Shown here piece after piece: positions 35,162-58,042 of a DNA stretch of 64,000 bases. Location: contig NZ_VFQE01000001.1 of the NCBI RefSeq assembly GCF_006717095.1, positions 1 through 64,000 on the forward strand. The letters are read 5' to 3'. Made by a program: the position numbers and the translations under genes. Position 1 is the first letter of the stretch. Each line of letters begins with the position of its first letter. The notes beneath the pieces were generated by a model. That model saw only the letters and a program-made list of their open reading frames with translations, searched no databases and had not been told where the DNA came from. This stretch comes from Blastococcus colisei. Lineage in GTDB: Bacteria > Actinomycetota > Actinomycetes > Mycobacteriales > Geodermatophilaceae.

Positions 35162-35208
35162 GCTGCGTCCTCGGTGACCGAGCTTGCGAGGTCACGCATG
35201 AACACAGC
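35162..35208 (+). repeat. Hairpin with GAGCTTGCGA loop between fhaA and fhaB (divergent copy)
   Basis: GGTGACC at 35173-35179 and GGTCAC at 35190-35195 pair around the loop GAGCTTGCGA (35180-35189), the same loop as the three elements at 45873, 52229 and 55648. An outer pairing GCTGCGT/ACACAGC has one mismatch. The arms are unrelated in sequence. Confidence 0.5.
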
Positions 35209-35250
35209 AGCGCCGCTCGTGGAGCCGGCGAGCGCCAGCGAGTCGGTGCA

Positions 35251-44643: not shown

Positions 44644-45408
44644 TCAACCGGAGGTGGCGAACTCCAGGTCCAGGGGCCCATCGTAGGCGGGCAACTCCAC
44701 CACCGGTCGCTCGCGCACGGTGAAGGTGAGCCCGAAAGCCTCCACGGCCTGCTGGAACACCGCGACCTGGGGGGAGGCGGCCAGCTGCGCCCGCACCGCG
44801 GAGGGGTCGGCGATGGCGGTGACGATGAACGGCGGCGAGTAGGTGCGGCCCTGCAGGAGGAGGGTGTTGCCGACGCAGCGCACCGCGCTGGTCGCGATCA
44901 GCCGCTCGTCCATGATGGCCACCCCGTCGGCCGCCGCCGCCCACACCGCGTTCACCACGGCCTGGACGTCGGACTGGTGGATGACGAGGTCGTCGGCGCT
45001 GGCGTTCACCGGCCGGCTGCCGTCCGGTCGGGAGGGGGCGTCGTCCAGGGTGATGACCACACCGGAGCCGGTGAGCGGCACCAGAGCCGCCGACAGCGCA
45101 CCCGCATCCCCGGCGGTCTGGGCGGCCGCCACGTCGCTGTTGCGGGACGCCGCCTGATCGGTGAGCCGCTCGACCTGCCGCTGGAGGTCACCGAGCTGGT
45201 CGCCCTGCTCGGCGATGACCGCGTTGCGCTGGTCGATGAGCTCCGAGAGCTCGGTGATCTCCCCTGCCCGGAGGTCCATGCCCTGGGCTGCCCGCCCGGA
45301 CGTGGCGAACAGCAGGCCGGCCAGGAGGGCCACGACCGGTACGAGGGCGCCCCAGGGGGAGAGCCGGCGCCCGCGGAGGACGCGGCCACGGAGCGACGAC
45401 CGGCTCAC
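44644..45408 (-). CDS. DUF881 membrane protein
   Basis: A 254-residue protein with an Arg-rich cytoplasmic start, a membrane helix (WGALVPVVALLAGLLFATSG), a coiled coil (LIDQRNAVIAEQGDQLGDLQRQ) and the DUF881 domain (GVVITLDDAP, and VWAAAADGVAIMDERLIATS). GTG at 45408 after GAGGAGG. Conserved beside crgA and linked by position with cell division or wall growth; mechanism unknown. Divergent from crgA across about 130 bp. Confidence 0.9.
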   Translation of the reverse strand: MSRSSLRGRVLRGRRLSPWGALVPVVALLAGLLFATSGRAAQGMDLRAGEITELSELIDQRNAVIAEQGDQLGDLQRQVERLTDQAASRNSDVAAAQTAGDAGALSAALVPLTGSGVVITLDDAPSRPDGSRPVNASADDLVIHQSDVQAVVNAVWAAAADGVAIMDERLIATSAVRCVGNTLLLQGRTYSPPFIVTAIADPSAVRAQLAASPQVAVFQQAVEAFGLTFTVRERPVVELPAYDGPLDLEFATSG

Positions 45409-45537
45409 GGGGCACCTCCTCGGGGATCTCCTGCGGCGCGACGGCATGTGCCACCGCCCCGACCTCCGATGGCAGCTTAGGCTGATACCAGTTCCGGCCG
45501 GCGGTGACAGCCCGGCCCACGGAAGGGAGTCCCCCCG

Positions 45538-45810
45538 GTGCCCAAGTCCAAGGTCCGCAAGAAGTCGGCCTACACGCCCCCCGAGGGCGTCCTCCAGGCG
45601 CGCTCGACGCAGCCGCGTGCCCTGCAGCCCAGCCCCCGGTGGTTCGCGCCGGTGATGGTCGGCCTGATGCTGATCGGCCTGCTGTGGATCGTCGTCTACT
45701 ACGTGGCGGGCGACCAGATCCCGTTCATGGTCTCGCTGTCGGCGTGGAACTTCGCGATCGGCTTCGGCGCCATGGTCGCCGGCCTGATCATGTCGATGCG
45801 CTGGCGTTGA
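45538..45810 (+). CDS. crgA: CrgA cell-division inhibitor/coordinator
   Basis: A 90-residue protein with two membrane helices (WFAPVMVGLMLIGLLWIVVYY and MVSLSAWNFAIGFGAMVAGLI) after a basic N-terminus (PKSKVRKKSAYTPPEG). In Streptomyces it delays division and in mycobacteria it recruits FtsZ and PbpB to the septum. GTG at 45538 after GGAAGGGAG. Ends at a perfect 14-bp terminator. Confidence 0.95.
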   Translation: MPKSKVRKKSAYTPPEGVLQARSTQPRALQPSPRWFAPVMVGLMLIGLLWIVVYYVAGDQIPFMVSLSAWNFAIGFGAMVAGLIMSMRWR

Positions 45811-45830
45811 AGCAGTACCCGACTCGACCG

Positions 45831-45863
45831 GAGGCCCCCGTCCCCTCGAGGGACGGGGGCCTC
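45831..45863 (+). terminator. crgA terminator
   Basis: GAGGCCCCCGTCCC (45831-45844), loop CTCGA, GGGACGGGGGCCTC (45850-45863): a perfect 14-bp stem 21 bp after the crgA stop. Confidence 0.85.
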
Positions 45864-45872
45864 TGTCGTTGA

Positions 45873-45927
45873 CCCCTGCAGGATCCGGCCGCGAGCGTGC
45901 GAGTGGCTGGGGGGCAGGGGGTCCTTT
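45873..45927. repeat. Two-stage hairpin element, copy A
   Basis: Outer arms CCCCTGC (45873-45879) and GCAGGGG (45914-45920); inner arms CCGGCCGC (45885-45892) and GTGGCTGG (45903-45910) with two G-U-type pairs; loop GAGCGTGCGA (45893-45902); then GTCCTTT. Shares loop, internal bulges and 3-prime TCCTT with copies at 52229 and 55648, while arm bases differ in a compensating way. Confidence 0.85.
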
Positions 45928-46373
45928 CGCTGTGCACAGACGAAAGTCTTCGTCCACAGGTCGACATGACGCTCCACCCCCAGGGTTGTCCACCGAGTGT
46001 GGAGAGACGGAACGGACCCGGCCTGCCCTGACCTGCGAAGACACCTGGCGTGGGGCGGATGTGACGCGAGGACCACGGAGGTAACTACAGCTGTGTGAGT
46101 CTGTCCCCAGCTGTGCATGGGGCTGTGGACGTGTCGACAAGGACGCACGGTCGAGGCGGTGACCCTGCGACCGCTGTACCCCTGCTGACCTGCACGGACA
46201 CGTGAGCCGGTGACGCACGGGACCGGCGGAACGGCGCAGCGAGCGGTACCGTTCCGTCCCTCGCCGGGGGCGATGGTCCACAGGGCGCATGTGGGGATCG
46301 GCACGAGGCCGGTCACGAGGATCACCGGCACCGGTCTGCCGCCGATCTCGCGCCCACCGCCGCGGAGACGCCG
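45928..46373. other. Non-coding region with several DnaA-box-like sequences
   Basis: No convincing gene. It holds TCGTCCACA (45950-45958), TTGTCCACC (45986-45994), TGTCGACAA (46132-46140, minus-strand box) and TGGTCCACA (46274-46282), each one mismatch from TTGTCCACA. Also palindromes CTGTGCACAG (45930-45939) and AGCTGTG repeats near 46088-46115. It is not the expected oriC position, which should be next to dnaN beyond the right edge. Confidence 0.45.
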
Positions 46374-46406
46374 CAGGGCGGCCGTCCACGCGGGACGACC
46401 GCCCTG
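46374..46406 (-). terminator. Hairpin downstream of the thiolase gene
   Basis: CAGGGCGGCCGTCC (46374-46387), loop ACGCG, GGACGACCGCCCTG (46393-46406), one mismatch, 17 bp beyond the thiolase stop on the minus strand. Confidence 0.65.
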
Positions 46407-46422
46407 AGAGCGGAGGAGAGCG

Positions 46423-47583
46423 TCAGGCGCCGATGAGCTCCAGGACGGTGGCGTTGGCCATGCCGCCGCCCTCGCACATCGTCTGCAGGCCGTAGCGGAC
46501 GCCGTGGGCCCGCATCTGGTGGATCAGGGTGGTCATGATGCGCGCGCCCGAGCCGCCCAGCGGGTGGCCGAGGGCGATCGCGCCGCCCCGCGGGTTCAGC
46601 CGCGCCGGGTCGGCACCGATGTCGGCCAGCCACGCCAGGGGGACCGGAGCGAAGGCCTCGTTGACCTCGTAGATGCCGATGTCGTCGATGGAGAGCCCGG
46701 AGCGGGCCAGGACCTTCTGGGTCGCGGGGATGGGTGCGGTGAGCATGATGACCGGGTCGTCCCCCGCCATCACCGTGGTGTGGATCCGCACGAGCGGGGT
46801 GAGCCCCAGCTCCCGGGCCTTCTCGCTGGTGGTCACCAGGAGCGCGGCCGCGCCGTCGGAGATCTGGCTGGCGTTGCCCGCGGTGATGACGCCGTCCTCC
46901 TTGAACGGGGTCTTCAGGGAGGCGAGCTTCTCCAGCGTCCCGCCGGGCCGGATGCCCTCGTCGGCGCTCACGACCGTGCCTCCCGGCGTCGTCACCGGCG
47001 CGATCTCCTCGTCGAACGCACCGTCGGCCTGCGCCTTGGCGGCCGACTCGTGCGAGGTCAGGGAGAACTCGTCGAGCTGCGTGCGGGAGAAGCCCCAGCG
47101 CTCGGCGATCATCTCCGCACCGATGCCCTGGTTCGGGTGGATGCCGCCGTAGCGCTCCATGTAGCGCGGGCCGAGCGGCTTCCCCGCCGACCCGTCGCCG
47201 CGGGCGGCACCCATCGGCACCCGGCTCATCGACTCGACGCCGCCGGCGACGACCACGTCGGCCTGGCCACTGATCACGGTGGCCGCGGCGAAGGCGACGG
47301 CCTGCTGGGAGGAGCCGCACTGGCGGTCGATCGTCGTGCCGCAGACGCTCTCCGGCCACCCGGCCGCGAGCGGCGCGTTGCGGCCGACGTTGAAGGTCTG
47401 CTCGCCGACCTGGCTCACGCAGCCCCAGAACACGTCCTCGACGACGGCCGGGTCGATGCCCGTCCGCTCGGCCAGCGCGGTCAGGACATGGGCGGAGAGG
47501 TCGACGGCGTGCACGCCGGACAGCCCTCCTCCGCGCTTGCCGACCGGGGTGCGCACGGCGGCACAGATGACGGCATCTCGCAT
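46423..47583 (-). CDS. Acetyl-CoA C-acyltransferase (thiolase)
   Basis: A 386-residue thiolase. AAVRTPVGKRGGGLSGVHAVD at the start, nucleophile Cys near residue 89 in RQCGSSQQAVAFA, NEAFAPVPLAWL, GGAIALGHPLGGSGARI with the His, and TMCEGGGMANA with the second Cys. It cleaves or joins acyl-CoA with acetyl-CoA. ATG at 47583 after GAGGAG. The beta-oxidation or degradative type is suggested by sequence style; the two acyl-CoA dehydrogenases in the window are not adjacent. Confidence 0.92.
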   Translation of the reverse strand: MRDAVICAAVRTPVGKRGGGLSGVHAVDLSAHVLTALAERTGIDPAVVEDVFWGCVSQVGEQTFNVGRNAPLAAGWPESVCGTTIDRQCGSSQQAVAFAAATVISGQADVVVAGGVESMSRVPMGAARGDGSAGKPLGPRYMERYGGIHPNQGIGAEMIAERWGFSRTQLDEFSLTSHESAAKAQADGAFDEEIAPVTTPGGTVVSADEGIRPGGTLEKLASLKTPFKEDGVITAGNASQISDGAAALLVTTSEKARELGLTPLVRIHTTVMAGDDPVIMLTAPIPATQKVLARSGLSIDDIGIYEVNEAFAPVPLAWLADIGADPARLNPRGGAIALGHPLGGSGARIMTTLIHQMRAHGVRYGLQTMCEGGGMANATVLELIGA

Positions 47584-47669
47584 GGTCGAACTCCTCGACG
47601 ACGGTCCGGGCGCCGAACGGTCAGCCCTGACCGATCGTAGGACTCCCCCGGGGATGGCACGCTGCGGCC

Positions 47670-48086
47670 ATGACGTGGACTCCACCGACGTGGGACACCG
47701 CTGCCACTGCCTCGCTGGGCGTGCTGCTGGCGGTGGGCGTTCCGGTCGTCGCCGACGCCCCTGGACGGATCCTGGCGGCTGCGGGCGCGATCCTGCTGCT
47801 CGGGCTGGCACTTCGCGACGTCGTCCTGCGTCCCCGGCTGTCCGCGAGCCACGACGGCGTCGTCGTCCGCACGCTCACCGGCGCGATCCGGCTGCCCTGG
47901 GCGGACGTGCGCGTGCGAGTGCGCGAGACCCGTCGCTTCGGGCTACGGGGCCGGACCCTGGAACTGGACACCGCCGCCGGCCCTCACGAGGACGGCTCGC
48001 TCATCGTCCTCGGTCGCCGCGACCTGGGCGCGGACCCCGAGACCGTGGCCCGCACCCTGTGGGAGCTGGACCCGAGGCCGCGCTAG
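47670..48086 (+). CDS. Membrane protein with bacterial PH domain
   Basis: A 138-residue protein: two helices ([17 protein letters not shown] and ILAAAGAILLLGLAL), then a beta-rich bacterial PH domain (LSASHDGVVVRTLTGAIRLP, WADVRVRVRETRRFGLRGRT). It corresponds in position to the PH-like gene next to crgA and ppiA in mycobacteria. Ends in a 4-nt convergent overlap with the rhomboid gene. Function unknown. Confidence 0.82.
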   Translation: MTWTPPTWDTAATASLGVLLAVGVPVVADAPGRILAAAGAILLLGLALRDVVLRPRLSASHDGVVVRTLTGAIRLPWADVRVRVRETRRFGLRGRTLELDTAAGPHEDGSLIVLGRRDLGADPETVARTLWELDPRPR

Positions 48087-48955
48087 AGCCCGAGCACCAC
48101 CAAGGTCGGAACCGTCAGCGCGACGACGAACAGCACCAGCCCGAATGCCGCCAGCCCCGCGATCTCCACGGGCCCCCGCCGGCGGGTCAGCACCAGGATC
48201 CCGGCCGTCAGCGCGCCGGCGACGAGCCCGCCGAGATGGCCGAGCAGCGAGATGCCGGGCAGGAAGCTGACGAACACGTTGATCAGCAGGAGGGTGAGCA
48301 GGCCGCGCAGGTCCTCCCGCCGGGCCAGCATGAGCACCCCGAGGGCGCCCAGCAGGCCGTAGATGGCCGCCGAGGCGCCGGCCACGGGCACGCGCGGATC
48401 GCCGAGCAGCTGGATCGCCACCGCCCCGCCGAGCGCCGACAGCAGGTAGAGCGTGAGGTAGCGCCATGGACCGAGCCGCCGCTCCAGTTCCGAGCCGAAG
48501 AGCAGCAGGGCGAGCATGTTCATCGCCAGGTGCACCGGTCCGATGTGCAGGAACGCGGCCGTCAGGACCCGCCACCACTCGCCGAGGAGCAACACCCCGT
48601 ACGGCCACTGGGACAGCGCGTCGAACACCGGCGACGCGTAGTTGTCCAGCGGAGACCGGCCGGCGAGGCCCGCCGACACCGCAGTCACCAGGAACATCGC
48701 GACGTTGGCCGCGATCAGGCCGAGGGTGATGACACCCCAGCGGCGCCCCGCCATCCGCACACCGCTGCCCCGACGGACGGGGCGGATGGAGGCCTGCCCC
48801 TCCCGGACGCACTCAGGGCACTGGAACCCCACCGAGGCAGGGATCATGCATTCCGGGCAGATCGGGCGGCCGCACCGCGCGCAGGAGATGCCGGTCGGCC
48901 GGTCCGGGTGCCGGTAGCAGGTGGTGGTGGGGGGCGCCGGCTGGTGCTCGGTCAG
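48083..48955 (-). CDS. Rhomboid intramembrane serine protease with N-terminal zinc-finger-like Cys motif
   Basis: About 290 residues if it begins at CTG 48955; the conservative ATG at 48847 gives 254. The longer frame adds CYRHPDRPTGISCARCGRP and ICPEC, a cysteine/histidine pattern that pairs with FQCPEC after the ATG, so the extension is probably real. Seven-helix rhomboid core: HIGPVHLAMNMLALL, GASAAIYGLLGALG with the catalytic Ser, and LLGHLGGLVAGALTAG with the catalytic His. No ATG or GTG is in frame; CTGA overlap with the ppiA stop suggests coupled start. Confidence 0.88.
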   Translation of the reverse strand: MTEHQPAPPTTTCYRHPDRPTGISCARCGRPICPECMIPASVGFQCPECVREGQASIRPVRRGSGVRMAGRRWGVITLGLIAANVAMFLVTAVSAGLAGRSPLDNYASPVFDALSQWPYGVLLLGEWWRVLTAAFLHIGPVHLAMNMLALLLFGSELERRLGPWRYLTLYLLSALGGAVAIQLLGDPRVPVAGASAAIYGLLGALGVLMLARREDLRGLLTLLLINVFVSFLPGISLLGHLGGLVAGALTAGILVLTRRRGPVEIAGLAAFGLVLFVVALTVPTLVVLGL

Positions 48956-49485
48956 CTGCGCTGCACCTCGACCGACTGGATGACGACGTCCTCGACCGGC
49001 TTGTCACCACGGGCGGTGGGTACGGCGGCGATCTTGTCGACGACGTCCCGGCCGGCCTGGTCGGCCACCTCGCCGAAGATCGTGTGCTTGCGGTTGAGGT
49101 GCGGGGTCGGGCCGACGGTGATGAAGAACTGGGAGCCGTTGGTGCCCGGGCCGGCGTTGGCCATGGCCAGCAGGTAGGGGCGGTCGAAGGACAGCTCGGG
49201 GTGGAACTCGTCGCCGAACTGGTAGCCCGGGCCACCGAAGCCCTGGCCGAGCGGATCGCCGCCCTGGATCATGAAACCGGAGATGACCCGGTGGAAGATC
49301 GTGCCGTCGTAGAGCTTGTCGGTGGTCTTCTGGCGCGTCTCGGGGTGCGTCCACTCGCGGGCGCCCTCGGCCAGGTCGGCGAAGTTGGCGACCGTCTTCG
49401 GCGCGTGGTCCGGGAAGAGGTCGACGGTGATGTCGCCGTGGTTGGTGTGCAGGACCGCGCGGCGGGCGGGAGTCGATTCAGTCAC
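48952..49485 (-). CDS. ppiA: Cyclophilin-type peptidyl-prolyl isomerase
   Basis: A 177-residue cytosolic cyclophilin that speeds proline cis-trans isomerisation. AVLHTNHGDITVDLFPDHAP, FHRVISGFMIQGGDPLGQGFGG (in parts) with the catalytic Arg, and AMANAGPGTNGSQFFIT. No signal peptide. GTG at 49485. It precedes and overlaps rhomboid, the same gene order as in other actinobacteria. Confidence 0.95.
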   Translation of the reverse strand: MTESTPARRAVLHTNHGDITVDLFPDHAPKTVANFADLAEGAREWTHPETRQKTTDKLYDGTIFHRVISGFMIQGGDPLGQGFGGPGYQFGDEFHPELSFDRPYLLAMANAGPGTNGSQFFITVGPTPHLNRKHTIFGEVADQAGRDVVDKIAAVPTARGDKPVEDVVIQSVEVQRS

Positions 49486-49666
49486 GACGCCCAGTCTCCC
49501 ACCGATCCGCGGGGCACCGCCGACCCGGGGACGGCGTCCCCTGCGAGGCAGTGAGCGTCTCGACGACGAGCAGCAGCCCGGAGGGCCGCCTGGTCTCCCA
49601 CCGCACCGAATCTCCGGGCGGTTCAGTCACATCCCCGCGGACCTGGCTCGATGAGGGAACGGCTTC

Positions 49667-50542
49667 TCATGCGGTGGCTTCTGCAAGGCCGGCGAAGACG
49701 ATGACGTTGGCCTGGTAGTCGCCGGTGTCCTCGTCGAAGGCTCCCCCACAGGTGATGAGCCTCAGACCCACCTCGTCGATGTCGCCGTAGACCTCGTCGG
49801 TCGGAAAGTCGCCTTTGGGATGCTCTTCGACCCGGTCGACCACGAAGGTCACGACGGTGCCGTCGGCGCGGTCGATGACGACGGTGTCCCCGCCGCGCAG
49901 CTCGCGCAGCCCGTAGAAGGCTCCGGGCTGGCCCTCCCAGTCGACGTGTGCGGCCAGGACGGCGGGTCCCAGCCGCCCTGGGGCAGGGCTGCCGTCGTAC
50001 CAGCCCACGGGGTAGGCGCCCGGCGGGACCTCCATGCTCCCGTCGCTCTCGAGGCCGAGATGCATGATCTCCGAGGTCATCCCCAGGGCCGGGATCTGGA
50101 CCCGGACCGGATCGCTGGCCGGCAGCTCACGGAGGCCGGCGGCCGGGGAGACCTGCCCAGGCGTCGCGGGCGTCGTGGTCGGCGCCGCGGTGACCGGTGC
50201 GGCAGCGACGGCCGACGGCACGGCCAGCCGGGCGGAAGGGCCGGTGTCCTGCGGGAGGAGGACCACCGCTCCGACGCCCGCGACGGCGAGCAGGACGGAG
50301 GCAGCGGTCCAGACGTGGCCGGCACGGGCCCGGTCGGTCCGGTCGGTCCGGGCGGCGCGGCGCGCGGCTCGTCCGTAGCGAGTGACGGCAGGTGGTCGGG
50401 CGAGAAGGTGCCGCACCCCTGCCTCGCCGACCGACGTCGGCACGCGCGGTGGTGGCGGCGGATACGGACCCACGATCCGCGCCACACCGCCCACCCCGGC
50501 CCCTGAGGGACCGAGGTGGGCGGTGTGCGCGCGGTCGAGCAT
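49667..50542 (-). CDS. Class F sortase
   Basis: A 291-residue sortase. Cytoplasmic Pro/Arg-rich start, a membrane helix (VWTAASVLLAVAGVGAVVLL), a Thr/Ala linker, then the catalytic domain: VQIPALGMTSEIMHLGL, VLAAHVDWEGQPGAF with the catalytic His, LRLITCGGAFDEDTGDY with the Cys, YQANVIVFAGL. ATG at 50542. It follows, on the same strand, a secreted CHRD-domain protein 11 bp away, its probable partner or substrate. Confidence 0.9.
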   Translation of the reverse strand: MLDRAHTAHLGPSGAGVGGVARIVGPYPPPPPRVPTSVGEAGVRHLLARPPAVTRYGRAARRAARTDRTDRARAGHVWTAASVLLAVAGVGAVVLLPQDTGPSARLAVPSAVAAAPVTAAPTTTPATPGQVSPAAGLRELPASDPVRVQIPALGMTSEIMHLGLESDGSMEVPPGAYPVGWYDGSPAPGRLGPAVLAAHVDWEGQPGAFYGLRELRGGDTVVIDRADGTVVTFVVDRVEEHPKGDFPTDEVYGDIDEVGLRLITCGGAFDEDTGDYQANVIVFAGLAEATA

Positions 50543-50553
50543 GTGCCTGGTGA

Positions 50554-51345
50554 TCAGGCAGTCGTGCGGGAGTTCCGCCGCGCGGCGAAGGCGGCGCCAC
50601 CGGCCGCGGTGAACGCGAGGCCGCCGAGGACGTAGGGCAGCGAGCCCGCCGCGTCGGTGGACGCGCTGCCGTCGCCGGCCGCGACCCCGCCGGCGGGGGT
50701 GGCCTTCAGGACGCCACACAGGGCGGGGTCGGTGGCCTCACCGGGCAGCGACGCGTCCAGGTCGGACACACCGCGGTTACCAGCGCTGTAGGTGCCGTTG
50801 CCGTCGTAGTCCACACCGTGGACGACGACGACAGCCTTGCCCGCGAGGATGGCCGTGGCGACCGCTTCGCTCACCTGGACGTCTCCGCGGGAGTACGAGA
50901 AGTTGTCACCGACGGGCATGCGGTCCACGGCCAGGCCGGACGTGGGGGAGGTGTCGCCCGAGGTGGTCAGCGACACCACGATCTCGCCGTAGGCCGGGCC
51001 ACCCTCGGTGGTGGTGAAGTGCTCGTGGGGATTGGTCTCGCCCGAGAGCGCCGCAGCGTTGTTGTCCGACGCCGTGGGGCACGCGTTGCGGGCCGCCTCG
51101 CCGAAGTGGATGTGCGCCGCGTGCGGCGCCCCCGCCAGCAGGCCCTGGGCCGCCAGGGTGAACGACAGGTTCGTGCCCGAGATCTGAGCGGTTGCCTGGC
51201 CGCTGGCGGTCACGGGGTTGACGGGCACGGGCGTCAGGTCGGCCCGGGCCGAGCCCTCCGCTGCGGCAGCGGGGCCCGCTGCCGCCAGCAGGGCGGTGAA
51301 GCCGACGATCGGGACGGTCAGGGCTGCGCGCGTGATGCGGTTCAC
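50554..51345 (-). CDS. Secreted CHRD-domain protein with C-terminal membrane anchor
   Basis: A 263-residue protein. Signal peptide (ITRAALTVPIVGFTALLAAAG, cut near AAAAEG), a CHRD-type beta domain (TASGQATAQISGTNLSFTLAAQ, GAPHAAHIHFGE, FTTTEGGPAYGEIVVSLTTS), and a C-terminal helix followed by RRNSRTTA. There is no canonical LPXTG; SLPYVLGG before the helix may be a variant. GTG at 51345 after GAGAGGTG. Operon-like with the class F sortase, so a wall-attached surface protein is inferred. Confidence 0.82.
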   Translation of the reverse strand: MNRITRAALTVPIVGFTALLAAAGPAAAAEGSARADLTPVPVNPVTASGQATAQISGTNLSFTLAAQGLLAGAPHAAHIHFGEAARNACPTASDNNAAALSGETNPHEHFTTTEGGPAYGEIVVSLTTSGDTSPTSGLAVDRMPVGDNFSYSRGDVQVSEAVATAILAGKAVVVVHGVDYDGNGTYSAGNRGVSDLDASLPGEATDPALCGVLKATPAGGVAAGDGSASTDAAGSLPYVLGGLAFTAAGGAAFAARRNSRTTA

Positions 51346-51773
51346 GGTGCACCTCTCATCGATGTCCCCGCGGAGCCGCTGGTGTGGGCGCCGTCGAGGC
51401 AGGTCTTCCACACCGGGTATCGGTGGCCGGTGGCCCTGCTGTGACCCGTCACGGGCAAAAAGATTGCGGGAAACAGTCTTTTGCGGCGCCAGTGAGCACT
51501 CGAGTGGTCGCTGTGAACTCGCCCGGGACCTGTTCTGCTGGGGCCTTCGAACCGTGGCGGGGAGCATGAGCCCGCCGCGGTAGCGGTGGCCCGCTCGGCG
51601 TACCGGTGACAGTCGTGGAACTGCTCGAGCCCGTTGCGGCAGCGTCCGATCACGGTGCGGCGTCGGCCGCTGAACACCCCGCGCCACGTCGCCGCCTGGC
51701 TACACCGAGCTGATCGGACACGCGTTGCCGCAGGGCGCCGCGCTGCGTGCGGTGTCCCGGCAAGACGCAGAAG
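51346..51773. other. Intergenic region upstream of the CHRD-sortase pair
   Basis: About 428 bp with no convincing gene. It should contain the promoter of the CHRD gene. I see no strong repeat, hairpin or known operator. Confidence 0.5.
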
Positions 51774-51846
51774 TGGAGACGAGGGGAATCGAACCCCTAA
51801 CCCCCGCCTTGCAAAGGCGGTGCTCTGCCAATTGAGCTACGTCCCC
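51774..51846 (-). tRNA. tRNA-Ala (TGC anticodon)
   Basis: Acceptor GGGGACG/CGTCTCC with one G-U pair, D arm AGCTCAATTGGCAGAGC, anticodon loop TTTGCAA and T arm AGGGGTTCGATTCCCCT. The 3-prime CCA is not encoded. Position after gyrA with tRNA-Ile is typical of actinobacteria. Confidence 0.98.
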
Positions 51847-51875
51847 TGAGCCGTCCCGAGGGGCGGCCGGGTGGT

Positions 51876-52019
51876 TCAGCGGGTGGTGGGCGTGCTGATC
51901 GCGTCGGGGCCCTTGGTGGCCTCGTGCCACAGGTCGGCCTCGGCCTTGCCGCTCGAGCGCTTCCGCACGGCGGCCAGGGCTCCGGCGGCGACGGCGGCCA
52001 GAGCCAGCTTCTTCAGCAC
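51876..52019 (-). CDS. DLW-39-type small protein
   Basis: A 47-residue protein: LKKLALAAVAAGALAAVRKR, then SSGKAEADLWHEATKGPD. It contains the DLW motif of a small family known between the tRNA genes downstream of gyrA in mycobacteria. GTG at 52019 after GAGGAGG. One short hydrophobic helix; function unknown. It lies between tRNA-Ile and tRNA-Ala on the same strand. Confidence 0.8.
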   Translation of the reverse strand: MLKKLALAAVAAGALAAVRKRSSGKAEADLWHEATKGPDAISTPTTR

Positions 52020-52117
52020 GCGGGGGACCTCCTCGACCGCTTCGGCGCACCGCCGGGACGGTGACCGATACGGCGCTCGGCGCCGGAGGCTGGTGCAACC
52101 GGCGAGGGACACACGGG

Positions 52118-52191
52118 TGGGCCTGGGAGGACTTGAACCTCCGGCCTCATCCTTATCAGGGATGCGCTCTAACCGCCTGAGCTACAGGCCC
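52118..52191 (-). tRNA. tRNA-Ile (GAT anticodon)
   Basis: Acceptor GGGCCTG/CAGGCCC, anticodon loop CTGATAA with GAT, T arm GGAGGTTCAAGTCCTCC. The 3-prime CCA is not encoded. Confidence 0.98.
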
Positions 52192-52228
52192 GTGAACCTC
52201 GAACAGTCTACGTGACGGGATGGAACGG

Positions 52229-52285
52229 CCTCGTCGCAGGGTCCCGCCACGAGCTTGCGAGTGGTGGGGGGCGACGAGGTCCTTT
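52229..52285. repeat. Two-stage hairpin element, copy B
   Basis: Outer arms CCTCGTCGC (52229-52237) and GCGACGAGG (52271-52279), perfect; inner arms CCCGCCAC (52243-52250) and GTGGTGGG (52261-52268) with one G-U-type pair; loop GAGCTTGCGA (52251-52260); then TCCTTT. It sits against the stop codon of the DUF3566 gene. Confidence 0.87.
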
Positions 52286-52286
52286 C

Positions 52287-53048
52287 TCAGTCGCGTTCGG
52301 AGAGCGTGAGCTCCAGACCGCCCACCAGATCGGAGCAGAGGTTGTAGATGAACGTCCCGACGGTGCAGAGCGCCGTCATCAGGACGATGTTGATCCCCCC
52401 GATGATCGCCGCGCCACCGAAGACCAGACCCGGGGTGACGACGTCGCCGCCCGTGTCCGACCCGGACGCCGAGCCGATCTGCCCGAAGAGGTCGTTGAGG
52501 GTGTCGAAGACGCCCAGGGAGTTGAGCACGCCGTAGAGGACGCCGACCGCGACCATCCAGATGAAGAACAGCGCGATCGACAGGACCAGCGAGATCTTCA
52601 GCGCCGACCAGGTGTCGATGTGGCGCAGTTGCAACCGGGCCCGACGGGGACCGCGGCCCCCGGGGCGCGACGGGCGGCGACCGCCGGAAGGGCGACCACC
52701 CACCCCCGTGTCGGCGCCCGCCTCGGCAGCGGCCTCCGGGGCCGAACCTGTCGTCGAGCCCCCCGCCGATCCCTTCGCCGCCTCCGGCGTCACGGCGGCG
52801 GAGCCCGCCGGCGGCGGCACCGGCGGAGCGCCTGCGGGCCCGCCGGCCGGCGGGTTGCCGGTGGCGGGGCCCTGCGCCCTCTGCGTGCCGGTCGTGGGGA
52901 TCGACTGCGTCCCCGTCGAGGGTCGGGACGGATCCGGGGCGCCGGCCGGGCCCTTGCCAGCGGGCGCGGCTCCCGACGACGCGGCTGTCGGCCCTCCGTC
53001 CCCGGCGGGGGACTCGGTGCGCACCGAACCCTGCGTCCGGTCGCTCAT
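52287..53048 (-). CDS. DUF3566 membrane protein
   Basis: A 253-residue protein. Residues 1-130 are Pro/Ala/Gly-rich and disordered. DUF3566 follows: RLQLRHIDTWSALKISLVLS, VLYGVLNSLGVFDTLNDLFG, and a second helix with VLMTALCTVGTFIYNLCSDL. It has two membrane helices. ATG at 53048 after GGGGAG. Position just downstream of gyrA is conserved; in mycobacteria this gene follows gyrA directly. Function unknown, perhaps division-related. Confidence 0.9.
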   Translation of the reverse strand: MSDRTQGSVRTESPAGDGGPTAASSGAAPAGKGPAGAPDPSRPSTGTQSIPTTGTQRAQGPATGNPPAGGPAGAPPVPPPAGSAAVTPEAAKGSAGGSTTGSAPEAAAEAGADTGVGGRPSGGRRPSRPGGRGPRRARLQLRHIDTWSALKISLVLSIALFFIWMVAVGVLYGVLNSLGVFDTLNDLFGQIGSASGSDTGGDVVTPGLVFGGAAIIGGINIVLMTALCTVGTFIYNLCSDLVGGLELTLSERD

Positions 53049-53126
53049 GCCAGTCTCCCCATCCCCGGGCGGCGCACGCCGCTCCCCAGCGTGGCCGGGC
53101 CGGTCACGCTGTGATCCAGGCCCAGA

Positions 53127-55595
53127 TTAGGCTTCGGGCTCGTCGTTGTCCGTCGTACGGGCGATTGCCACGATCGACACGTCCTCGGGCAAGTTCATGA
53201 GCTTGACACCCATCGTGGCGCGGTCCTTGTTGTGTCGCACGCCGTTCACCGGTGTCCGGATCACGCCGCCACCGGAGGTGATGGCGTACAGCTCGTCGCC
53301 GAGGGTCACCGCCAGGGCGCCCACCAGCGCGCCCTTGCGAGCCTTCGGATCGGCGGTGAGCACACCCTTGCCGCCGCGTCCCTGGTTCGGGTAGTTCTCG
53401 ATCCCGGTCCGCTTGGCGAAGCCGCGCTCGGTGGCGACGAGGACGTCGACACCCTCCTGCACGACCATCATCGACAGCAGCCGGTCGTCGTCGGACAGCG
53501 AGATGCCGCGGACGCCCTCGGTCGCCCGGCCCATCGGCCGCAGCGCGCTGTCGTCGGCCGTGAACCGGATCGACATCGCCTTGCGGGTCACCAGGAGCAG
53601 GTCCTGGTCCTGGTTGATGAGGACTGCCCCGACCAGCTCGTCGCCGTCGCGCAGGTTGATGGCGATCACGCCACCCTGGCGCGGGCTGTCGAAGTCGGTC
53701 AGTCGGGTCTTCTTGACCTGGCCCTTGGCGGTGGCCAGCGCCAGGTACGGGGCGACCGAGTAGTCCTTGATCTGCATGACCTGGGCGATCTTCTCGTCCG
53801 GCTGGAACGCGAGGATGTTCGCCACGTGCTGGCCGCGGGCCGTGCGGTTGGCCTCGGGCAGCTCGTAGGCCTTCGACCGGTAGACCCGGCCCTTGTTCGT
53901 GAAGAACAGGATCCAGTCGTGGGTGGAACCCACGAAGAAGTGGTCGACGATGTCGTCCTGCTTCAGGGCCGCACCCATCACGCCCTTGCCGCCACGGCGC
54001 TGCGAGCGGTAGAGGTCGCTCTTCGTCCGCTTCGCGTAGCCGGTGCGGGTGATGGTGACGACGACCTCCTCCTCCGCGATGAGGTCCTCCATCGAGACGT
54101 CGCCGTCGTTGGCGATGAACTGGGTGCGCCGGTCGTCGCCGTACCTCTCGACGATCTCGGCCAGCTCGTCGTGGATGATCTGCCGCTGCCGCTCGGGGGA
54201 GGCGAGGATCGCCTCGAGGTCGGCGATCTCCCGCTCGAGCTCGGCCAGCTGGTCGAGGATCCGCTGACGCTCGAGCGCGGCCAGCCGGCGCAGCTGCATG
54301 TCCAGGATCGCGACGGCCTGGATCTCGTCGATGTCGAGCAGCTCCATCAGCCCGCCGCGGGCGGCGTCGGCCGATTCGCTGTTGCGGATGAGCGCGATGA
54401 CGGCGTCGAGCTGGTCGAGGGCCTTGGCAAGACCGCGCAGGATGTGCGCGCGCTCCTCGGCCTTGCGCAGCCGGTAGCGGGTCCGCCGCTGGATGACCTC
54501 GATCTGGTGGTTGACGTAGAGCTTGACCAGCTCGTCCAGGCGCAGCGTCCGGGGGACGCCGTCGGCGATGGAGAGCATGTTGCAGCCGAACGTCGTCTGC
54601 AGCTGGGTGTGCTTGTAGAGGTTGTTCAGCACCACCTTGGCGACGGCGTCGCGGCGCAGGGTGATCACCAGCCGGCGACCGACCCGGTCGCTGGACTCGT
54701 CGGCGATCTCGCTGATGCCCTGCAGCCGGCCGTCCTTGACCGCCTCGGCGATGGACTCGGCCAGGTTGTCCGGGTTCACCTGGTACGGCAGCTCGGTGCA
54801 GACCAGCTGCACCCGCCCGCGGGAGTCCTCCTCGACGGTGACGACGGCACGCATGCGCACCGAGCCCCGGCCGGTCCGGTACGCGGAGTCGATGCCCTCG
54901 CGGCCGACGATCAGGCCGTACGTCGGGAAGTCCGGGCCCTTGATCCGCTCCATGCAGGCGGTGAGGGCTTCCTCGGGCTCGGCGTCCGGGTGCTCGAGGA
55001 TCCAGAAGACGGCCGCGGCCACCTCGCGCAGGTTGTGCGGGGGCATGTTGGTGGCCATGCCGACGGCGATGCCGGCGGAGCCGTTGATCAGCAGGTTCGG
55101 GATGCGCCCCGGCAGGACCAGCGGCTCCTGGTTCTTGCCGTCGTAGTTCGGCTGGAAGTCGACGGTCTCCTCGTCGATGTCCCGGAGCATCTCCATGGCC
55201 AGCGGGGTCAGCCGGGCCTCGGTGTACCGCATGGCGGCAGCCGGGTCGTTGCCCGGGGAGCCGAAGTTCCCCTGCCCGTCGACGAGCGGGTAGCGCATCG
55301 ACCAGGGCTGGGCCAGCCGCACGAGGGCGTCGTAGATCGACGAGTCGCCGTGCGGGTGGTAGTTACCCATGACCTCACCGACGACGCGCGCGCACTTGAC
55401 GTAGCTGCGGTCGGGTCGGAAGCCCTGGTCGTACATCGCGTAAAGCACGCGGCGGTGCACGGGCTTGAGGCCGTCGCGGACCTCGGGCAGGGCGCGGCCG
55501 ACGATCACCGACATCGCGTAGTCGATGTAGCTGCGCTGCATCTCCTGCTGGAGGTCGACCGGCTCGATGCGGTCACGCGCGGGGGTCTCGGTCAC
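53127..55595 (-). CDS. gyrA: DNA gyrase subunit A
   Basis: An 822-residue type IIA topoisomerase subunit that cuts and rejoins DNA. Catalytic Tyr124 in [10 protein letters not shown]. The quinolone pocket reads [10 protein letters not shown], with Ser85 and Asp89 at the E. coli Ser83 and Asp87 positions, the sensitive-type residues. The GyrA box QRRGGKG needed for wrapping DNA is at about residue 538. GTG at 55595. The downstream end of gyrB carries hairpin element C in the 109-bp gap. Confidence 0.97.
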
Positions 55596-55647
55596 GGTTC
55601 AGGTCTCCACGGTCGGGTGGGCGGTGCGGGATGCGGTCGCGTCCGAT

Positions 55648-55702
55648 CCCCTCGCAAGGCCCCGCTGCGAGCGTGCGAGCAGTGGGGGGCGAAGGGGTCC
55701 TT
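55648..55702. repeat. Two-stage hairpin element, copy C
   Basis: Outer arms CCCCTCGC (55648-55655) and GCGAAGGGG (55689-55697, one bulged A); inner arms CCCCGCTGC (55660-55668) and GCAGTGGGG (55679-55687) with one G-U-type pair; loop GAGCGTGCGA (55669-55678); then TCCTT. It is between gyrB and gyrA and reaches the gyrB stop codon. Confidence 0.87.
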
Positions 55703-55704
55703 CA

Positions 55705-58042
<2,338 letters not shown>

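What the first reader, a model, noticed from the sequence alone, without database searches (positions are those of the whole stretch)
45873..55702. Dispersed two-stage hairpin element with invariant loop and covarying arms
Copies A (45873), B (52229) and C (55648) share one design. It has outer arms of 7-9 bp, a short AGG-type bulge, inner arms of 8-9 bp, the loop GAGC(G/T)TGCGA, a GG or GGG bulge and a 3-prime TCCTT. The outer arms differ between copies (CCCCTGC, CCTCGTCGC, CCCCTCGC), yet each pairs with its own partner. Compensatory change with a fixed loop points to selection for structure, or to a REP-type palindrome moved by a transposase. Each lies against a gene 3-prime end (crgA terminator, DUF3566 stop, gyrB stop). 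I recall no published name for it.
Basis: seen in the sequence. Interest (0 to 1): 0.85.

Follow-up and report, generated by a model that had tools for sequence, protein, structure and literature searches.

The report
Orphan REP-like hairpins at stop codons
The three hairpins are copies of a short mobile DNA palindrome found dozens of times per genome in one family of soil bacteria, usually set right against the stop codon of a gene, in genomes where the usual enzyme that moves such palindromes was not found.

Summary
A covariance model from 17 copies finds 80 copies in the window's genome (E<=0.01) and matches 101 of 112 genomes of its family, which I take to be Geodermatophilaceae from record titles. 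Arms covary: the variable 5-nt outer arm matches its own partner exactly in 73 of 94 scorable copies, 5 after shuffling. The element is mobile: copies are nested in copies, and the gyrA-gyrB site is occupied in 9 of 14 congeners, in both orientations and two subtypes. In 48 of 70 own copies an end lies within 6 nt of a stop codon, 18 expected. One strand folds better in 68 of 74 copies, mostly not the mRNA strand. It works like a REP palindrome but has no GTAG or CGTC tag, is longer, and no Y1/RAYT transposase was found in 112 family genomes. Best reading: an orphan REP-type family mobilised in trans by an unidentified activity acting on one folded strand and placed at gene ends. The enzyme, the insertion chemistry and any host benefit are not shown.

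The parts
45869..45927 (+). Copy A, 58 nt past the crgA stop codon; 5' foot worn
   Evidence: (59.9 bits)
52225..52285 (+). Copy B, intact; 3' end 1 nt from the DUF3566 stop codon (gene on the minus strand)
   Evidence: (87.4 bits)
55643..55703 (+). Copy C between gyrB and gyrA; 3' end 1 nt from the gyrB stop codon (gene on the minus strand); outer arm imperfect
   Evidence: (75.8 bits)
52209..52226 (+). Upstream leader of copy B, a worn form of GTGACGTGCTGGAAC that precedes a minority of copies (long form of the element)
   Evidence: B scores 13 of 15; 13 of 74 own copies score 11 or more, 3 of 74 at control offsets
55705..55707 (-). gyrB stop codon TGA abutted by copy C

Best explanation
A REP-type, non-autonomous mobile palindrome of Geodermatophilaceae, 55 nt from foot to foot (61-position model). 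One strand folds into an 11-bp outer stem, an unequal internal loop (5 nt / 2 nt), an 8-bp inner stem with a conserved G.T pair, and the loop GAGC..GCGA. SHOWN: high copy number, lineage restriction, covariation, insertion polymorphism and nesting, placement within a few nt of stop codons, strand asymmetry, no detectable Y1/RAYT transposase. INFERRED: a protein acting in trans recognises the folded plus strand by its fixed loop and wobbles while the outer arm may vary as long as it pairs; copies are inserted at gene ends; variants that still fold are the ones that spread, which leaves a pool of covarying arms. At a stop codon an insertion does little harm because the stop is kept or re-formed at the junction. 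Any effect on mRNA decay or translation would be secondary.
For: 80 own copies; 101 of 112 family genomes but only 2 others, with 1-2 hits each, beyond the 18 relatives that matched in a 150-genome order sample. Covariation. Copies inside copies: L019:17034, L058:5025, L029, L016, L087:7419, L095:4857, G015 C23:115856. gyrA-gyrB site: 8 of 13 congeners occupied, 5 empty, both orientations, two subtypes. 7 of 19 occupied ortholog pairs are in opposite orientation. 48 of 70 own and 81 of 108 named copies within 6 nt of a stop, uniform placement 18.3 and 35.6. G.T against A.C departures 35 v 13 and 51 v 12. Plus strand more stable in 68 of 74 as RNA, 64 of 74 as DNA; in 45 of 74 both neighbouring genes run antiparallel to it.
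Against: No mobiliser was found. Very close empty sites, target duplications and within-species movement were not seen. Two ortholog pairs have near-identical elements in 77-88% identical flanks (L014/L099, L093/L119) and L080/L136 nearly so, which fits host constraint or recent conversion as well. Model R1 accepts G.U, which biases the strand counts. Copies are not independent of one another in the placement counts.
Confidence: 0.65

Rival explanations
1. A host RNA element: the hairpin is kept as a terminator, mRNA 3'-end stabiliser or translation modulator directly after stop codons, and covariation reflects selection on that RNA.
For: Placement within 6 nt of stops; stable folds on both strands; 4 of 74 own copies lie between divergent genes; E. 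coli REPs within 15 nt of stops are reported to regulate translation (PMC12306157, passages). L037/L133 differ by two double changes and no breaking change.
Against: In 45 of 74 copies the mRNA carries the weaker-folding strand. Congeners lack the element at gyrB and other genes, and the element changes orientation and subtype there. G005 has one weak copy while its sister G007 has 134.
Confidence: 0.2
2. Covariation made by quasipalindrome correction: template switching copies one arm onto the other, so arms match without selection.
For: It makes both arms match in one step (mechanism recalled). Slippage-like tandem arrays of element parts exist (L129, L118, L086, L114).
Against: It should erase the conserved G.T pairs and the unequal internal loop. 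The G.T pairs stand in 42 and 36 of 53 own copies and in 107 of 117 and 108 of 121 named copies, and never appear as A.C.
Confidence: 0.12
3. A relic family: copies were spread by a RAYT that has since been lost, and only decay and conversion go on now.
For: No Y1 or RAYT in 112 genomes. Worn copies exist, e.g. A, C, and a deleted remnant at site B in G015.
Against: The element is abundant in many genera of the family (9 of 12 genera) with insertion differences between congeners, so the loss would have to be late and repeated everywhere.
Confidence: 0.15

Closest known systems
GTAG-tagged REP elements moved by RAYT (TnpA-REP)
   Same: High-copy short palindromes near gene 3' ends; termini can supply stop codons; stem irregularity; one strand recognised (PMC3733652 section 15; PMC8266576 passages)
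   Different: No fixed GTAG at the 5' foot; 55-61 nt against 20-40; two-stage stem; no Y1/RAYT in 112 family genomes
CGTC-tagged REP elements
   Same: High copy, beside gene 3' ends, no dedicated transposase known (PMC3733652 abstract and sections 6, 15, 16)
   Different: No CGTC tag; stems of 11 and 8 bp in two stages instead of one of 8-9 bp
IS200/IS605-type subterminal hairpins and their non-autonomous derivatives
   Same: Strand-specific folded DNA as the recognition site (recalled and PMC8266576 passages)
   Different: No Y1 transposase found; left and right ends not defined
Integron attC sites
   Same: Folded single-strand site behind a stop codon, structure kept while sequence varies (recalled)
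   Different: Copies sit at ordinary chromosomal genes such as gyrB; no cassette array was seen; integron integrase was not searched for

Membership tests
GTAG REP (RAYT-associated) | GTAG tetranucleotide at the 5' foot | tested here: not met
   5' flank base counts over 158 copies show only a C preference (76%) at the last position
GTAG REP (RAYT-associated) | RAYT (Y1) transposase in the genome | tested here: not met
   PF01797 0 of 112 and NF047646 0 of 112 family genomes; both ring in E. coli
GTAG REP (RAYT-associated) | 20-40 bp palindrome | tested here: not met
   55 nt foot to foot, 61-position model
REP in the broad sense | Many dispersed copies, mostly extragenic and near gene 3' ends | tested here: met
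   80 own copies; 70 of 74 placed copies have a gene 3' end beside them
REP in the broad sense | Irregular stem with conserved mismatch or bulge, one strand distinguishable | tested here: met
   Two conserved G.T pairs, 5/2 internal loop, plus strand folds better
REP in the broad sense | Mobility | tested here: met
   Nested copies and occupied/empty sites; movement itself not observed
REP in the broad sense | Head-to-head or tail-to-tail dimers (BIME) | not tested
   Tandem and nested copies were seen; dimers were not counted
CGTC REP | CGTC tag | tested here: not met
   No such tag in the flank counts
CGTC REP | No associated transposase gene | tested here: inconclusive
   No Y1/RAYT; 305 neighbouring genes clustered, no shared candidate; other transposase classes not searched
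Rfam families | Match to a curated family | tested here: not met
   No match over B or C at E<=1 in window 45000-56500; a sub-threshold sbcD match (45732-45870, E 0.17) overlaps A by 2 bases

The most novel reading that the evidence does not exclude
The family is mobilised by a single-strand DNA transposition system unrelated to Y1/HUH RAYTs, one that sets copies at gene ends in either orientation and is active across most of Geodermatophilaceae.
Probability: 0.3. Interest if true: 0.82.

Novelty: new variant of a known kind. Interest (0 to 1): 0.58.

Why it matters
REP palindromes are usually explained by RAYT transposases. Here a REP-like family is present in 101 of 112 genomes of a bacterial family with no such enzyme found and with near-nucleotide placement at stop codons. 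Sister species with 1 and 134 copies make a direct test possible: compare gene content to find the mobiliser, and compare expression with and without copies. It also warns against reading covariation as proof of an RNA function.

Tried and rejected
RAYT/Y1 as mobiliser: PF01797 0 of 1 own, 0 of 16 genus, 0 of 112 family; NF047646 0 of 112. Other transposase classes were not searched.

A gene recurrently flanked by copies, as RAYT genes are: 305 neighbouring genes from own and named loci were clustered, 27 of them flanked on both sides. The largest cluster (7 genes) was held together largely by the element's own translation read into gene ends (six of the seven carry it), not by a shared enzyme. 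Four of those seven and two other neighbours were scanned with Pfam: five match ordinary host families (MscL, AAA/Mg-chelatase, MFS, short-chain dehydrogenase, Zincin_2) and one matches nothing.

Terminator as the main role: orientation and fold-strand data disagree.

A fixed DNA target motif: stops of all three types are hit and spacing varies by several nt, so no simple motif was accepted. A C and G preference 3' of the element was not pursued.

Literature: searches gave no description of this element or of REPs in Geodermatophilaceae. The library holds open-licence PMC papers only.

Dropped rows: one search used 38 of the 54 candidates (16 judged by eye to be chance, worn or composite); one search used 17 of the 38, chosen for near-equal length; 6 of 80 own copies were not held and so not placed; one search scored 94 of 177 copies (16 of 53 own, 78 of 124 named: those with both arm anchors), perfect in 11 of 16 and 62 of 78; one search left out loci not scanned with R1, counted element-partner entries (so a site can recur), and includes at least one pair that is probably not orthologous (L029:9909/L091, matched through nested element sequence). 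Copy counts per genome are lower bounds: at most 150, 36 or 48 first-look candidates were scored per genome. The gene finder is home-made (codon usage) and some starts are wrong.

The two genomes outside the family with hits (G073, G083) may be contamination or transfer; both sequences lie near contig starts and this was not resolved. One genome search was left unused.
Full report
THE OBSERVATION. Copies A, B and C are present as described and fold better than shuffled sequence (z -2.35, -3.88, -2.45). The exact loop GAGCKTGCGA occurs 78 times in the 5.16-Mb genome against 39 for the reversed control pattern. Of the 78 sites, 40 sort with this element by a loose filter, 29 belong to a second repeat family and 9 to neither. 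An alignment of 17 copies gave an 11-bp outer stem, a 5-nt/2-nt internal loop, an 8-bp inner stem and the GAGC..GCGA loop: 95.6% of cells paired, 9 pairs with changes on both sides, 41 cells changed on both sides against 11.5 in shuffles. The covariance model R1 finds 86 places at E<=0.1 and 80 at E<=0.01 in the own genome; at most 150 first-look candidates are scored per genome.

COVARIATION IN OTHER GENOMES. In 122 distinct copies from named genomes (not used to build the model, though found and aligned with it), 97.5% of cells pair and 240 cells changed on both sides against 64.7 in shuffles; sliding the partner by 1-3 columns gives at most 22. The 5-nt variable outer arm matches its own partner exactly in 73 of 94 scorable copies (11 of 16 own, 62 of 78 named); shuffled partners give 5.0 on average, 12 at most. 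The pattern that fetched the named loci left the 3' arm free and did not include the 5' arm.

WHERE IT OCCURS. The 80 listed are titled Geodermatophilus, Blastococcus, Modestobacter, Trujillonella, two unnamed Geodermatophilaceae, and one 'UNVERIFIED_ORG: Bacillus sp. AZ43'. That the window belongs to this family is inferred from these titles and from orthologous stretches shared with those loci. Copy number differs sharply between sisters: 1 in G005 and 134 in G007.

IT IS MOBILE. Copies lie inside copies (L019:17034, L058:5025, L029, L016; L087:7419, L095:4857; G015 C23:115856). Tandem arrays occur (L129, L118, L086, L114), one with a 66-bp period (G121). The gyrA-gyrB site was in hand for 13 of 15 congeners: 8 occupied, 5 empty; with the own copy, 9 of 14. 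Occupied sites show plus and reversed orientation and two stem subtypes, so I infer at least four insertions unless copies invert or are converted (tree, midpoint-rooted). Among 19 occupied pairs taken as orthologous, 7 are in opposite orientation; the 12 in the same orientation show 24 double, 11 one-sided and 6 breaking changes. In 32 further entries the partner has no R1 hit, and some hold insert-sized sequence that may be a decayed copy. Site C itself is worn in both own and G015 copies, and G015 keeps only a remnant at site B.

STOP CODONS. Of 80 own copies 74 could be placed; 70 have a gene 3' end beside them and 48 lie within 6 nt of its stop codon, against 18.3 for uniform placement in the same gaps (maximum 27 in 2000 trials). 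In named genomes the figures are 81 of 108 against 35.6, maximum 47. The 3' end of the element is the usual near end: 44 of 61 own on that side, 11 of 25 on the other. Tandem and orthologous copies are counted singly, so these counts are not fully independent. All three stop codons are used (listing), and at gyrB the stop differs among relatives, always after FLDV. Some insertions fall just before the stop and add a tail such as KDPxAPHHSQARGG to the protein (L110 MscL-like, L144, L153). In own C1:77904 and G015 C23:115856 the stop seems to have been re-formed at the junction (my reading).

WHICH STRAND MATTERS. Outside two conserved G.T pairs, departures on one side give G.T more often than A.C: 35 v 13 in own, 51 v 12 in named copies (binomial p 0.002 and 7e-7). 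The conserved G.T pairs are replaced by G-C, A-T or other mismatches but never by A.C. The plus strand is more stable in 68 of 74 copies as RNA and 64 of 74 as DNA. In 45 of 74 both neighbours run antiparallel to that strand, so their mRNA holds the poorer fold. This favours recognition of one strand as single-stranded DNA over an mRNA function. Caveat: R1 accepts G.U, which biases what is found.

THE MISSING ENZYME. Y1_Tnp (PF01797) and the RAYT model NF047646 find nothing in 112 family genomes, while both ring in E. coli. Genes beside copies gave no shared candidate. Other transposase classes were not searched.

COMPARISON. REPs are reported to lie close to gene 3' ends, GTAG REPs often to provide the stop codon TAG, and CGTC REPs to lack a dedicated transposase (PMC3733652: abstract, passages and sections 6, 15, 16 read). 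TnpA-REP is reported to act on one folded strand, and in E. coli to need the stem irregularity (PMC8266576, passages). E. coli REPs within 15 nt of stops are reported to regulate translation (PMC12306157, passages). A survey of HuH endonucleases (PMC6006769) was seen in passages only; it reports that 57.2% of 1354 species encode no such gene. The present element works like these REPs, but the GTAG, CGTC, length and RAYT criteria were tested and not met. I call it a REP-like orphan family, a new variant of a known kind.

WHAT IS NOT SHOWN. The enzyme, insertion chemistry, target duplication, activity within a species, and any host benefit. In-place compensatory change is suggested by one pair (L037/L133: two double changes, none breaking) but could be replacement by a new insertion. 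Near-identical elements in diverged flanks (L014/L099, L093/L119, L080/L136) would also fit host constraint.

Noticed in passing
window 35174-35243; L025:9906-10060, L038:18038-18192, L064:10001-10078: A second repeat family with the same loop: hairpin TGACC-GAGCTTGCGA-GGTCA plus a second hairpin GACGAGCGCCAGCGAG about 50 nt on, in 77-bp tandem units in places. TGA stands in the 5' arm of 29 of 29 copies by the filter used; arms next to the loop are exactly complementary in 20 of 29.
   Followed up: partly
L110:740-1192, L144:3974-4618, L153:4487-4768: The element read on its minus strand codes for KDPxAPHHSQARGG-type tails that form C-termini of ordinary proteins.
   Followed up: partly
L106:5692-5752: A copy lies inside a stretch that aligns as coding sequence with L137 and L010; the gene looks like a DUF222/HNH type to me (recalled; the Pfam call failed).
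   Followed up: no
L138 (SPQJ01000029.1): A record titled UNVERIFIED_ORG: Bacillus sp. AZ43 carries the element; probably a mislabelled Geodermatophilaceae genome.
   Followed up: no
gyrB 3' end, window 55705-55707 and L193-L205: The gyrB stop codon varies freely (TGA, TAA, TAG) among 14 congeners while the protein always ends in FLDV.
   Followed up: partly
upstream of copies, e.g. window 52209-52226: A 15-nt leader GTGACGTGCTGGAAC precedes a minority of copies (11 or more of 15 matches in 13 of 74 own; 3 of 74 at control offsets), so a longer form exists.
   Followed up: partly
L255, L258 (G073) and L256 (G083): Two genomes outside the family carry 1-2 good copies; L255 and L256 lie near contig starts, so contamination is possible.
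   Followed up: partly
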